Assembly (NCBI RefSeq): GCF_004211955.1
Contig: NZ_RHJI01000001.1
Span: 62,001 to 126,000 of the forward strand
Length of the DNA: 64,000 bases
DNA from: Escherichia sp. E1V33
Lineage (GTDB): Bacteria; Pseudomonadota; Gammaproteobacteria; Enterobacterales; Enterobacteriaceae
Reading direction: 5' to 3'
The translations under genes were made by a program, and so were the position numbers. Each line of letters opens with the position of its first letter. Position 1 is the stretch's first letter. The notes below the pieces were generated by a model that saw only the letters and a program-made list of their open reading frames with translations, was not told the DNA's origin and searched no databases. Below are positions 60,154 to 64,000 of this stretch, piece after piece.

Positions 60154-60179
60154 ACGGGGCCAAAAGGTCCCGTTTTTTT
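60154..60179 (+). terminator. glg operon terminator
   Basis: ACGGGGCC, AAAA, GGTCCCGT with one wobble pair, followed by seven T, 17 bases after glgP. Confidence 0.92.
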
Positions 60180-60251
60180 CGCCTTTATTTCGGAAAAGTG
60201 TCCAGAGGGGGCGAGGGTTCTCGGGGAGTATAATTCCGTCATTCAGGAAGA

Positions 60252-61769
60252 ATGGACAGAATGATGCCAAATAGAAAATGGATTTTGACCTCGCTGATAA
60301 TGACTTTTTTCGGCATCCCCATACTGGCGCAATTTTTGGCAGCGGTTGTTGCCATGCTGGGTGTCGGGCTTACCGGTATTATTGAAGTTTGTAATATCCT
60401 TATCACGCCAACAATTTATCTTCTACTCAACGTCTTTATGCTGACGCTGGGGGCGATAATAATATTTTTCTCTGGTCGCGTGTGGGCCGGTGATAGCGCA
60501 CCAGAAAACAGAGAAATAGCCGTCTGGCGGCAATGCTTTTTTCTCTTACCCGCGCTATTAACCCTGGTTGGCTGGATAATCACGCTACATCTGGCAGATT
60601 ATCAATTTCGCCAGATGGGAGCAGGTTGGTTGGCAAACCTTATGCTTCCCTGGCTGGGCGTTTTTTTAGTCTCATTAGTGGGTGGTGAGTACTGGTGGAT
60701 GGTCATTATTCCCGTTGGGGCGCATATCAGTTTTTCGCTGGGATACGCCTGGCCGACCAGATATCCTTTATCCGGCACGTCCGGACTACGTTGCCGTAAC
60801 TTACTCCTGTTTCTACTTCTCTTACTTGGTATTGTCGCCGGGTATCAGGCCCATTTATATAAGCAGCAAAATCCTGGTGTCGGTGTACGCGAAAATATTG
60901 ATATCTGGGCCTGGCGACCCGATAAACTCAATAATCGACTGACGCCGCTGCGTGGCAAACCGCAAATTCAGTTTAGGCAAAACTGGCCGCGAATCGATGG
61001 CGCCACGGCTGCGTACCCAATTTATGCTTCTGCATTTTATGCATTAAGTGTAATACCAGAGGATTTTCACGTTTGGGATTATCTGGAAAACTCTCGTACG
61101 CCAGAAGCATATAACAAAATCGTTAAGGGCGATGCTGATATTATTTTCGTGGCGCAACCTTCCGGTGGGCAAAAAAAACGTGCAAAGGAATCTGGTGTCA
61201 CTTTGCTGTACACCCCCTTTGCCCGTGAAGCATTTGTTTTTATCGTTAATGCTGATAATCCAGTTAATTCCCTGACTGAACAACAAGTGCGAGACATTTT
61301 TAGTGGCGCAATTACCAATTGGCGTACTGTTGGCGGTAACGATCAGGAGATCCAGACCTGGCAGCGCCCGGAAGACTCTGGCAGCCAGACAGTGATGCAA
61401 TCACAGGTCATGAAAAATGTCCGCATGATCTCGCCGCAGGAAACGGAAGTGGCAAGCGTGATGGAGGGAATGATTAAAGTCGTTGCCGAATACCGTAATA
61501 CAAACAACGCAATAGGCTATACCTTCCGCTATTACGCGACGCAAATGAATGCTGATAAAAATATAAAATTGCTAGCGATTAACGGTATTACACCGACGGC
61601 GGAAAACATTCGCAACGGCAAATATGCGTACATCGTCGATGCATTTATGGTGACGAGAGAAAATACAACGTCAGAAACACAAAAACTGGTCGAATGGTTT
61701 TTAACGCCGCAGGGGCAGAGTCTGGTAGAAGATGTGGGATATGTGCCGCTGTATCCAACAATGGAATAA
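60252..61769 (+). CDS. Membrane protein fused to a PstS-like phosphate-binding domain
   Basis: 505 residues from the ATG at 60252; ATGs at 60261 and 60264 are better spaced from AGGAAG and may be used. Residues 1-200 form five to six membrane helices (about 11-40, 44-73, 96-114, 128-145, 148-166, 183-199). Residues about 225-505 form a periplasmic PBP-like fold: DGATAAYPIYAS (249-260) and RPEDSGS (372-378), which matches the phosphate loop R-x-D-x-S-G-T of PstS with Asp to Glu and Thr to Ser changes. So a phosphate or other oxyanion sensor/binder tethered to the membrane. No ABC partner is nearby. Confidence 0.75.
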   Translation: MDRMMPNRKWILTSLIMTFFGIPILAQFLAAVVAMLGVGLTGIIEVCNILITPTIYLLLNVFMLTLGAIIIFFSGRVWAGDSAPENREIAVWRQCFFLLPALLTLVGWIITLHLADYQFRQMGAGWLANLMLPWLGVFLVSLVGGEYWWMVIIPVGAHISFSLGYAWPTRYPLSGTSGLRCRNLLLFLLLLLGIVAGYQAHLYKQQNPGVGVRENIDIWAWRPDKLNNRLTPLRGKPQIQFRQNWPRIDGATAAYPIYASAFYALSVIPEDFHVWDYLENSRTPEAYNKIVKGDADIIFVAQPSGGQKKRAKESGVTLLYTPFAREAFVFIVNADNPVNSLTEQQVRDIFSGAITNWRTVGGNDQEIQTWQRPEDSGSQTVMQSQVMKNVRMISPQETEVASVMEGMIKVVAEYRNTNNAIGYTFRYYATQMNADKNIKLLAINGITPTAENIRNGKYAYIVDAFMVTRENTTSETQKLVEWFLTPQGQSLVEDVGYVPLYPTME

Positions 61770-61794
61770 CGCTCGAGAGAAAGGAATCAGCGAG

Positions 61795-62787
61795 ATGAAT
61801 AAATTCACCGGTGTTTTACTATTAGGCACGGCGTTACTGGCGGGATGTGTCGACCGGGAAGGGTACTATAACAGCGTCAGGGAAGAAGAGAGCCATGGAC
61901 TGACGTCTCTGCGGGGGCAACCTGCATTACGTTACAGCGATGATTGGTCAAGATGGCCGAGAGTGTACGGCGCTACAGCCTTATACCCGCTGTATGCCTC
62001 CGCGTATTATAAATTAGTACCCGAGCCAAAAGATAAGGATCGAACCTCGCTGGCCTGGCAGGCGTATGGTTTGCAGCAAACCCGAACAGCTGAAGCCTAC
62101 GATAGTCTGATTAAAGGTTCCGCGACGGTTATTTTTGTTGCACAACCGTCGGAAGGACAGAAAAAACGTGCAGAAGAAGCGGGTGTTAAACTGAAATATA
62201 CCGCTTTCGCCCGCGAAGCCTTTGTCTTTATCGTTGATATTAATAACCCGGTAAATTCTCTCTCTGAGCACCAGGTTAAAGCTATTTTTAGCGGCAAAAC
62301 TAGCCGCTGGAATAAAGTAGGTGGTAGTGACGAACATATAAAAGTCTGGCAGCGCCCTGAAGATTCTGGAAGCCAAACGATTATGAAGGGGCTGGTTATG
62401 CAAGACACCCCAATGCTGCCAGCTAAAAAATCCACTGTGATTGATCTTATGGGCGGTTTAATTACTGAAGTTGCCGACTATCAAAACACGCCATCTTCCA
62501 TTGGGTACACCTTCCACTATTACGTCACTCGTATGAATGACAATATGCTCAAAATGCGCAAGCAGATTAAACTTTTGGCTATAAATGGCGTTGCGCCTAC
62601 CGAGGAAAATATCCGCAACGGCACTTATCCATACATTGTGGATGCCTATATGGTGACGCGTGAAAATCCCACGCCGGAAACGCAGAAATTTGTTGACTGG
62701 TTTATAAGTCAGCAGGGGCAACAGTTGGTAGAGGATGTGGGGTATGTGCCGCTGTATGAAGCATCCCCCGAATCATCAGGACAATAA
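61795..62787 (+). CDS. PstS-like lipoprotein, paralogue of the preceding fusion protein
   Basis: 330 residues from the ATG at 61795, which is followed by a lipoprotein signal with lipobox LAGC (Cys18); an earlier in-frame start inside the previous gene would lose this signal. The mature domain is closely similar to the C-terminal half of the preceding protein: GATALYPLYASAY, FVAQPSEGQKKRA, the loop RPEDSGS (187-193) and the common C-terminus LVEDVGYVPLY. So it is a tandem duplicate that has exchanged the membrane domain for a lipid anchor. K-12 yzgL, at this place, is probably a decayed remnant of such a gene. Confidence 0.78.
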   Translation: MNKFTGVLLLGTALLAGCVDREGYYNSVREEESHGLTSLRGQPALRYSDDWSRWPRVYGATALYPLYASAYYKLVPEPKDKDRTSLAWQAYGLQQTRTAEAYDSLIKGSATVIFVAQPSEGQKKRAEEAGVKLKYTAFAREAFVFIVDINNPVNSLSEHQVKAIFSGKTSRWNKVGGSDEHIKVWQRPEDSGSQTIMKGLVMQDTPMLPAKKSTVIDLMGGLITEVADYQNTPSSIGYTFHYYVTRMNDNMLKMRKQIKLLAINGVAPTEENIRNGTYPYIVDAYMVTRENPTPETQKFVDWFISQQGQQLVEDVGYVPLYEASPESSGQ

Positions 62788-63389
62788 TGATGAATATAAT
62801 CAGACTTTATATTTATCCGTTATTTCTCGGCTTTGTTATTGTGCCGTTGTTGGTGTGGCCGATGGTGGTTGCGCTGGCTGCTTGTATTATCACGCTGAGT
62901 TTTCTGGGGGAAATGCTGTTCTCAATCCCGCTCATGATCAGGCGTATTTCACTTCTGCAATTACAACTTTGGTTATCGGCTGAATATGCGCTTTTTTTCT
63001 GTGTAATATGTTGTGTCGGTTGGCAATTTGCTCGCAGAACTCAATCTAAATTGAAAAGCAGGCTCCATTGTTGGTTGGTATTCGCACCGATCTATTTATG
63101 GTTGATCCTCTGGAATATCATTTATTACATCGCGCCAGCGAAAATTGCGCTGCTGGAAAATATCCGCAATTTCTTTCTGCTTGTTGTCTGGCTACCCCTG
63201 AATTTTTCGCCATTTTGGCCTCAGCCGTGGACGGATTTTATCGGTCCGATAAGCGCACAGCTTGGGTTTGCGTTGGGATATTACTGCCAGTGGTGCAGCA
63301 AAAATAGAAGCCAGAGGCAGAAGTGGGGGGAGTGGGTAACGTGCTTAAGTTTTGTTACGTTGGGTATGATGGCGTGGGCTTTGCGGTAA
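62787..63389 (+). CDS. Small multi-helix membrane protein, partner of the PstS-like lipoprotein
   Basis: 200 residues with about five membrane helices (9-30, 32-50, 62-82, 94-115, 128-147, 151-166). The ATG overlaps the stop of the preceding gene (TAATG), with AGGA five bases before, so the two are co-translated. The stretch PISAQLGFALGYYCQW resembles PVGAHISFSLGYAWPT of the 505-residue fusion protein, also after a hydrophobic helix. It thus looks like the separate version of that protein's membrane half. Function unknown. Confidence 0.7.
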   Translation: MMNIIRLYIYPLFLGFVIVPLLVWPMVVALAACIITLSFLGEMLFSIPLMIRRISLLQLQLWLSAEYALFFCVICCVGWQFARRTQSKLKSRLHCWLVFAPIYLWLILWNIIYYIAPAKIALLENIRNFFLLVVWLPLNFSPFWPQPWTDFIGPISAQLGFALGYYCQWCSKNRSQRQKWGEWVTCLSFVTLGMMAWALR

Positions 63390-63442
63390 TTCCCTGAATC
63401 AAAAAGTAGGTCAGATTGTTGACAAAGTGGCGCTTTGTTCAT

Positions 63443-63540
63443 GCCTGATGCGGCGTGAACGCCTTATCAGGCCTACAAAATCATGCAAATTCAATATATT
63501 GCATAAACCACGTAGGCCTGATAAGCGTAGCGCATCAGGC
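63443..63540. repeat. BIME: two facing REP units
   Basis: GCCTGATGCGGCGTGAACGCC... (63443-63476) and GTAGGCCTGATAAGCGTAGC... (63512-63540), opposite orientation, between the three-gene locus and convergent glpD. Confidence 0.92.
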
Positions 63541-63603
63541 AATTTTGTGTTTGTCATCACTCTCAGGCCAGATTGAAATCTGACCTGATCACCTTACGTT
63601 AAT

Positions 63604-64000
63604 TTACGACGCCAGCGACAGCTTCTGCTGCGTATACTCCACCAACCACTGACTCACACGAGATTGTTGTTCCGCACTCAGCCACATACCTTGTTTTGTG
63701 CGACGCCACAGGGCATCGTCGGCGCGGCGGACCCACTCGTGGTCGACCAAATATTTCAGCTCCGCTTCGTAGAACTCATGACCGAAATCTTCCCCAAGAT
63801 CGCTTACCGCTCCCGCATTGCCGAGCAGCAACTCGCTGTTGCTGCCATAAGTACGCGCGTAATGACGTGCCAGCGATTCGGTCAGGAACGGATAACGGCG
63901 GCGTAAGCGAGCGGCATAATCGTCGCGGTCGCCCTCGATGGCACCACCCGGTAACACGCTCTCTTTTGTCCATGCCGGGCCAATGCCCTGATAATACGGC
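63604..64000 (-). CDS. glpD: Aerobic glycerol-3-phosphate dehydrogenase, C-terminal part
   Basis: The last 131 codons; the gene continues beyond the right edge. The visible part (YYQGIGPAWTKESVLPGG ... TQQKLSLAS) is the C-terminal cap domain of GlpD, the membrane-associated flavoenzyme that oxidises glycerol-3-phosphate to dihydroxyacetone phosphate and reduces quinone. It converges on the three-gene locus. Confidence 0.95.
   Translation of the reverse strand, partial: PYYQGIGPAWTKESVLPGGAIEGDRDDYAARLRRRYPFLTESLARHYARTYGSNSELLLGNAGAVSDLGEDFGHEFYEAELKYLVDHEWVRRADDALWRRTKQGMWLSAEQQSRVSQWLVEYTQQKLSLAS

What the first reader, a model, noticed from the sequence alone, without database searches (positions are those of the whole stretch)
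60252..63389. Three-gene PstS-like binding-protein/membrane-protein locus between glgP and glpD
Two adjacent genes encode paralogous oxyanion-binding-type domains, one fused to about six membrane helices and one as a lipoprotein followed by a separate membrane protein. Both keep the phosphate-loop pattern RPEDSGS. There is no permease, ATPase or kinase. A fused version and a split version side by side suggest that binding domain and membrane domain work together, perhaps as a signalling or non-ABC uptake device, or as scavenger of a phosphorylated compound. I know no description; K-12 retains at most the yzgL fragment.
Basis: partly seen in the sequence, partly recalled or inferred. Interest (0 to 1): 0.8.

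Follow-up and report, generated by a model that had tools for sequence, protein, structure and literature searches.

The report
Membrane-tethered PstS-like binding-protein cassette
Three genes between two sugar-metabolism genes make phosphate-binding-type proteins tied to the inner membrane without the usual transporter; they belong to a scattered bacterial family that seems not to have been studied, and the block looks as if it was recently swapped between Escherichia species.

Summary
60252-61769 (fus) encodes a membrane domain of about five helices fused to a PstS-like PBP_like_2 domain. 61795-62787 (lip) is a lipoprotein with a paralogous PBP domain (57% identical). 62787-63389 (tm) is homologous to the fus membrane domain but ends before its last helix. 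No ABC permease or ATPase lies here.

Fus belongs to a wide, patchy family (79 of 80 loci examined, five phyla) in which the membrane-PBP fusion is the rule and no Pst neighbour was found. The 'split pair' is not a stable unit: in E. coli the lip form is a minority (865 of 5,426 genomes), another operon has p237 and p255 in place of lip (p255 in 2,939), and one Enterobacteriaceae genome has lip without tm. K-12 yzgL is a deletion of the locus (junction in 1,258 genomes).

60173-62995 differs by 1.0% from an E. coli allele while glgP differs by 8.7%, which points to recent exchange between species.

Best reading: a transporter-independent, membrane-tethered oxyanion receptor with partial paralogues. 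New variant of a known kind.

The parts
60252..61769 (+). fus: membrane domain fused to a PstS-like PBP domain, 505 aa (start may be 60261 or 60264)
   Evidence: ORF; PF12849 2.8e-29
60252..60866 (+). N-terminal membrane domain of fus, about five helices, N-terminus inside
   Evidence: clade-averaged hydropathy and charge of loops; homology to tm
60921..61760 (+). PBP domain of fus, predicted periplasmic
61365..61391 (+). anion-loop motif RPEDSGSQT of fus
   Evidence: read; aligned with R135 to T141 of PstS; residue roles recalled
61795..62787 (+). lip: lipoprotein with a PBP domain, 330 aa
   Evidence: ORF (longer start listed there); PF12849 5.4e-30; lipobox LLAGC by eye
62353..62379 (+). 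anion-loop motif RPEDSGSQT of lip
   Evidence: read
62787..63389 (+). tm: membrane protein of 200 aa, homologous to the fus membrane domain without its last helix; start overlaps the lip stop
60173..62995 (.). tract 1.0% different from E. coli SCU-316, inside sequence that differs by 8-9%: likely recent recombination

Best explanation
The locus encodes a transporter-independent, membrane-tethered PstS-like receptor and two partial paralogues of it. Fus holds a PBP domain on the periplasmic face of the inner membrane. The domain binds an oxyanion: phosphate or a phosphorylated small molecule. Closure of its two lobes on the ligand is passed to the membrane domain, which changes its contact with a partner not encoded here (sensing), instead of feeding an ABC permease. 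Lip is a copy of the binding domain anchored by lipid, and tm a copy of the membrane domain without a binding domain; they more likely modulate fus, or act alone, than form a second receptor together. Shown: domain make-up, homologies, retained anion-loop pattern, constraint, and no PstC, PstA or PhoU relative among the neighbours tested. Predicted by simple hydropathy only: topology. Inferred: ligand class, signal transfer, roles of lip and tm.
For: PBP_like_2 and PstS-type profiles in fus and lip; full-length alignment with the PstS of the same genome, keeping T10, R135, S139 and G140, with S for T141 and a hydroxyl residue for S38 (hhalign probability 81.6%, E 1.1e-5); nearest solved structures are phosphate-binding proteins. 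The fusion recurs in 79 of 80 loci examined, three or more helices being predicted in 72 of the 79. No PstC, PstA or PhoU relative among 1,429 neighbouring ORFs of 100 loci. Binding domain strongly, membrane domain weakly conserved. Odd helix number with K/R-rich inner loops puts the PBP domain outside in Enterobacteriaceae outside Escherichia and in Bacillales.
Against: The counterpart of D56, which selects phosphate in PstS (recalled), is A301 in fus. Lip has changed D249 and D296, conserved at 91% and 95%. No kinase, cyclase or other output partner is linked and no neighbour is conserved across groups, so the signal has no known receiver. The helix scan gives six peaks for the Escherichia group. 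No Pho box in the locus. No structure, binding or expression data for the intact genes.
Confidence: 0.42

Rival explanations
1. Helper binding protein: fus (and lip) capture phosphate at the membrane and hand it to the ordinary PstCAB permease encoded elsewhere in the genome.
For: PstS-like domain with the anion loop; the same genome has a pst locus on contig C22 with PstS and PstC.
Against: Never found linked to PstC, PstA or PhoU in the loci examined; D56 not kept; a tether of five helices is more than capture needs.
Confidence: 0.15
2. Conflict locus: the cassette protects against, or is an entry point for, a toxin or phage that uses an inner-membrane protein, and is swapped because diversity pays.
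For: Cassette exchange between species and alternative gene sets at one site; p237 labelled YbbD family by RefSeq, ybbD lying near rhsD (recalled); in L050 fus lies downstream of a PAAR/Pyocin_S effector with small tandem ORFs.
Against: No PADLOC match for fus, lip, tm; p237 and p255 have no significant Pfam family, DUF4279 included; p237 and p255 were found in only 6 and 3 of 295 Enterobacteriaceae genomes, mostly as the glgP-glpD cassette or fragments; a toxin neighbour only in L050 among the loci I looked at.
Confidence: 0.15
3. Stand-alone carrier: the membrane domain itself moves the ligand across the membrane, served by its fused binding domain.
For: Several helices fused to a binding domain with no other permease nearby.
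Against: The helix number varies from about three to six in the family, conserved residues are few in the membrane domain, and it matches no transporter family over a cut-off; three helices are few for a carrier unless it forms oligomers.
Confidence: 0.1
4. Relic: fus duplications in decay, lip and tm being leftovers without a role of their own.
For: Tandem fus copies in L048 (L075), a 30-aa fus remnant before lip in L056; frameshifted tm in L144, broken fus and tm in L008; deletion junction in 1,258 of 5,426 E. coli genomes.
Against: tm dN 0.17-0.19 against dS 0.76-0.80 between alleles; lip dN/dS 0.12-0.14 between alleles and 0.04 against L056, the last at saturated dS; lip start 93% identical in E. 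albertii (L065).
Confidence: 0.18

Closest known systems
PstS, phosphate-binding protein of PstSCAB (PBP_like_2, TIGR02136)
   Same: Same domain family over its length; anion loop R-x3-S-G-S/T and GAT motif
   Different: Fused to a membrane domain (fus), scores below the TIGR02136 cut-off (122.6 and 118.7 against 206.6), no linked permease or ATPase, D56 replaced by A
ABC importers with a binding domain fused to the permease, such as OpuA and GlnPQ (recalled)
   Same: Binding domain fused to a membrane domain
   Different: The membrane domain here matches no ABC permease and no ATPase gene is present
yzgL of E. coli K-12
   Same: Same site, start of the same fus gene
   Different: Remnant left by a deletion of about 2.8 kb
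fus-p237-p255-tm operon of other E. coli (L142, L143)
   Same: Same site, orthologous fus and tm
   Different: p237 and p255 in place of lip; no meaningful BLAST similarity between them and lip

Membership tests
PBP superfamily, PBP_like_2 | Profile match over the curated cut-off | tested here: met
   103.1 and 105.5 bits, cut-off 27
PstS substrate-binding proteins (TIGR02136) | Score over NCBIfam cut-off of 206.6 bits | tested here: not met
   122.6 (fus) and 118.7 (lip) bits
PstS substrate-binding proteins | Phosphate contacts T10, S38, D56, R135, S139, G140, T141 (recalled) | tested here: inconclusive
   All kept or replaced by a like residue except D56, which is A301 (alignment of moderate confidence)
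Pst ABC transporter | Linked PstC, PstA, PstB | tested here: not met
   None in the locus; no PstC, PstA or PhoU relative among 1,429 ORFs of 100 loci, some of them the same genome twice; PstB was not tested, as the ORF caller dropped it
Pst ABC transporter | Phosphate binding and uptake | not testable with these tools
   Needs a binding assay
PBP fold | Two-lobed structure | not tested
Anti-phage defence or toxin-immunity genes | Match to a known defence or immunity family | tested here: not met
   No PADLOC family for fus, lip, tm; no significant Pfam family for p237, p255

The most novel reading that the evidence does not exclude
A so far unnamed, phylum-spanning class of receptors in which a PstS-like domain is built onto its own polytopic membrane module and works without any ABC transporter; in Escherichia it is an exchangeable cassette with alternative partner genes (lip, or p237 and p255) swapped across species borders, which implies selection on the diversity of an inner-membrane oxyanion receptor.
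Probability: 0.4. Interest if true: 0.72.

Novelty: new variant of a known kind. Interest (0 to 1): 0.5.

Why it matters
RefSeq names these proteins phosphate ABC transporter substrate-binding proteins, yet no transporter is linked, they carry their own membrane module, and the position of the phosphate-selecting acid of PstS is an alanine. About six in ten complete E. coli genomes carry the binding-domain part of the fused gene (3,305 of 5,426), while K-12 has only a remnant, which may be why it was overlooked. A ligand assay on one soluble domain would show whether bacteria have a transporter-free class of oxyanion receptors. The locus is also a clear case of cassette exchange between Escherichia species at a fixed site.

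Tried and rejected
DUF4279 for p237 was my guess from the look of the sequence; Pfam did not support it. RefSeq's 'YbbD family' label was not tested further. A septation-inhibitor NCBIfam hit of tm (8.7e-5, 22.7 bits, cut-off 120) was taken as chance. Gene conversion between fus and lip as the cause of the clustered differences at 61235-61329 and 61569-61658: no clear excess of lip-like bases (window like lip at 11 of 22 sites, the other allele at 7). Carriage by plasmids or phages: two plasmid records (one a 4.8-Mb E. coli record, one Treponema) at 1e-20, and 16 phage records with partial matches at 1e-5. Pho box: 8 matches in the whole window against 4.4 expected, none in the locus. Promoter and terminator scan of the locus: no more than in shuffles. 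ECs4269, found in one paper, is glpD. A first control for the tm homology failed to run (part) and was done. At first I took the window for E. coli; none of the 5,394 matching records exceeds the 90-95% band in glgC-glgA-glgP, the best being 92.8%.

Full report
What is there. Between glgP (ends 60136) and glpD lie three + strand genes, here called fus (505 aa), lip (330 aa) and tm (200 aa). Fus has an N-terminal membrane domain and a PBP_like_2 domain (2.8e-29); lip has a lipobox (LLAGC, by eye) and a PBP_like_2 domain (5.4e-30). The two PBP domains are 57% identical over 292 aa. Tm matches no Pfam family over its cut-off, but is homologous to the fus membrane domain: hhalign 98.4%, E 1e-14, 169 columns. 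A HMM of the fus membrane domain finds the five tm proteins at 4e-17 to 0.011, against 0.25 for the best reversed sequence, and hhalign of tm with four other membrane proteins and the reversed fus domain gives 0.1-2.4%. The lip stop and tm start overlap.

Topology. Hydropathy averaged over clades gives five helices in Enterobacteriaceae outside Escherichia and three in Bacillales, K/R-rich loops lying on the side of the N-terminus, so the PBP domain should be outside. The same simple scan gives six peaks, some adjoining, for the Escherichia, Budviciaceae-type and Campylobacterota groups, so the count there is unsure and the outside placement rests on the other groups. The shorter tm relative in L061 has four peaks.

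Ligand site. A profile of 87 family members aligns with PstS of the window's own genome over 250 columns (probability 81.6%, E 1.1e-5). R135-x3-S139-G140-T141 corresponds to R372-x3-S376-G377-S378, T10 to T252, S38 to S281 in that alignment (T283 if the gap is moved), and D56 to A301. The roles in PstS are recalled. The nearest solved structures by profile are phosphate-binding proteins (4q8r, 4gd5). Lip keeps the loop but has Y for D249 and T for D296; the lip of L056 shares the Y and keeps the D. An oxyanion ligand is likely; phosphate itself is not shown.

The family. In 79 of 80 loci an ORF of the family was found (L097 is the exception). Three or more helices are predicted in 72 of the 79; L065, L071, L107, L121, L122, L125 and L134 show fewer or are broken. 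The rows come from Bacillota, Pseudomonadota, Campylobacterota, Actinomycetota and one spirochaete. No neighbour is conserved across groups. None of 1,429 ORFs from 100 fetched loci (80 and 20, partly the same genomes, two of the 20 holding only a remnant or only tm) matches PstC, PstA or PhoU at 1e-6; PstB was not tested. The family is patchy: 20 of 295 Enterobacteriaceae genomes at 1e-10, a count with a remnant, a lip-only genome and weak PstS-type hits, and 2 of 398 genomes of the phylum at 1e-40. The window's genome has three PBP_like_2 proteins over the cut-off: PstS, lip and fus.

Origin of lip and tm. In a tree of 86 PBP domains lip and the lip of G281 pair with full support (100/100), next to the Escherichia fus clade (87/91, below the tree's own threshold), inside a 14-row Enterobacteriaceae clade (100/100) most of whose loci lie at the glgP-glpD site. 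Intestinirhabdus has two fus copies in tandem there. G281 has lip, a 30-aa remnant of the fus start before it, and no tm. E. albertii (L065) has fus in two pieces and the start of lip, 93% identical over 102 aa, cut by the contig end. Lip and tm thus look like partial copies of fus from tandem duplication (inference).

What E. coli has at this site. Of 5,426 complete genomes, with at least 80% of the query matched: PBP part of fus 3,305, p255 2,939, p237 2,315, lip 865, the whole three-gene stretch 865, the yzgL deletion junction 1,258. These are DNA matches, not checked for intact frames, and tm was not counted. Arrangements read: fus-p237-p255-tm (L142, L143), fus-p255-tm (L003; L008 with broken fus and tm), fimbrial genes with p237-p255-tm (L004, L006), fimbrial genes with a tm remnant (L007), fus-lip-tm (L002, L144 with frameshifted tm, L156, L157) and yzgL (L009). 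p237 and p255 show no meaningful similarity to lip and no significant Pfam family. They were found in 6 and 3 of 295 Enterobacteriaceae genomes, some hits being fragments. So 'a fused and a split version side by side' is true of the window but a minority form.

Cassette exchange. The window's genome is not E. coli in the strict sense: the best identity over glgC-glgA-glgP is 92.8%. Yet 60173-62995 differs from E. coli SCU-316 at 29 of 2,823 positions (1.0%), against 213 of 2,448 (8.7%) in glgP and 34 of 403 (8.4%) just after; 63399-63985 is at 2.4%. Lip is at least 99% identical in 551 of the 878 E. coli records matched. E. whittamii (L062) and two further Escherichia genomes (L063, L064) have no lip in the fetched locus, E. 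albertii has one. The simplest reading is recent replacement by homologous recombination; the direction, from E. coli into this lineage, is inferred. The site takes other inserts: the auf fimbrial operon (PMC12928451, passages seen) and an IclR-regulated metabolic cluster in Salmonella and others (PMC12445098, one passage seen).

Selection. Pairwise dN/dS: fus 0.10-0.18, lip 0.12-0.14, tm 0.22-0.42, p237 0.15, p255 0.20-0.29, glgP 0.013-0.015 among Escherichia alleles. All are constrained, less so than glgP. Mosaic alleles make dS values rough.

Function. The binding domain is the conserved part; the membrane part is weakly conserved and varies in helix number. That fits a tethered receptor or capture protein better than a carrier. 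I put 0.42 on a transporter-independent receptor; helper, conflict, carrier and relic rivals are given with tests. Literature: yzgL stands in a table of the CpxR regulon with -2.0 (PMC2731931, one passage seen). No paper on the intact genes turned up, of which I saw the listings; the library is open-access only.

Noticed in passing
window 60173-62995: Tract nearly identical to E. coli alleles inside a genome whose glg genes differ from E. coli by 7-9%: recent between-species recombination at a fixed site.
   Followed up: yes
window 61235-61329 and 61569-61658: Two short clusters of differences from SCU-316 inside fus, a mosaic of alleles; not clearly conversion from lip.
   Followed up: partly
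window 60474-60486 and 63325-63337; L009:5336-5348: The yzgL deletion of K-12 type joins these two places, which share only a short imperfect stretch (G-GTGGG type).
   Followed up: partly
L050:4504-8897: A PAAR/Pyocin_S effector followed by several small ORFs of about 105 aa, some alike, directly upstream of fus.
   Followed up: partly
L046:5099-12117: Superficieibacter carries fus, p237, an AAA_11/AAA_12 helicase with DUF2726, a second p237, p255 and tm in a row at the same site.
   Followed up: no
L045:8297-8842: Protein of family PRK09781 after fus whose first 50 residues resemble those of p237 but whose rest differs; RefSeq labels p237 elsewhere 'YbbD family'.
   Followed up: no
window 62743-62787 against L143:7321-7364: The last residues of lip and of the unrelated p255 are alike in DNA (YEASPESSGQ, YDASSESPGK type), a likely junction of cassette swapping.
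   Followed up: partly
L083, L085, L087, L090, L117: In Campylobacteraceae fus follows a conserved run of three small genes, at least two of them lipoproteins by eye (clusters 19, 20, 21).
   Followed up: no
L069:15249-15677 and L071:9578-10015: Small, apparently secreted protein of short DGHxxG repeats next to glpD in Superficieibacter.
   Followed up: no
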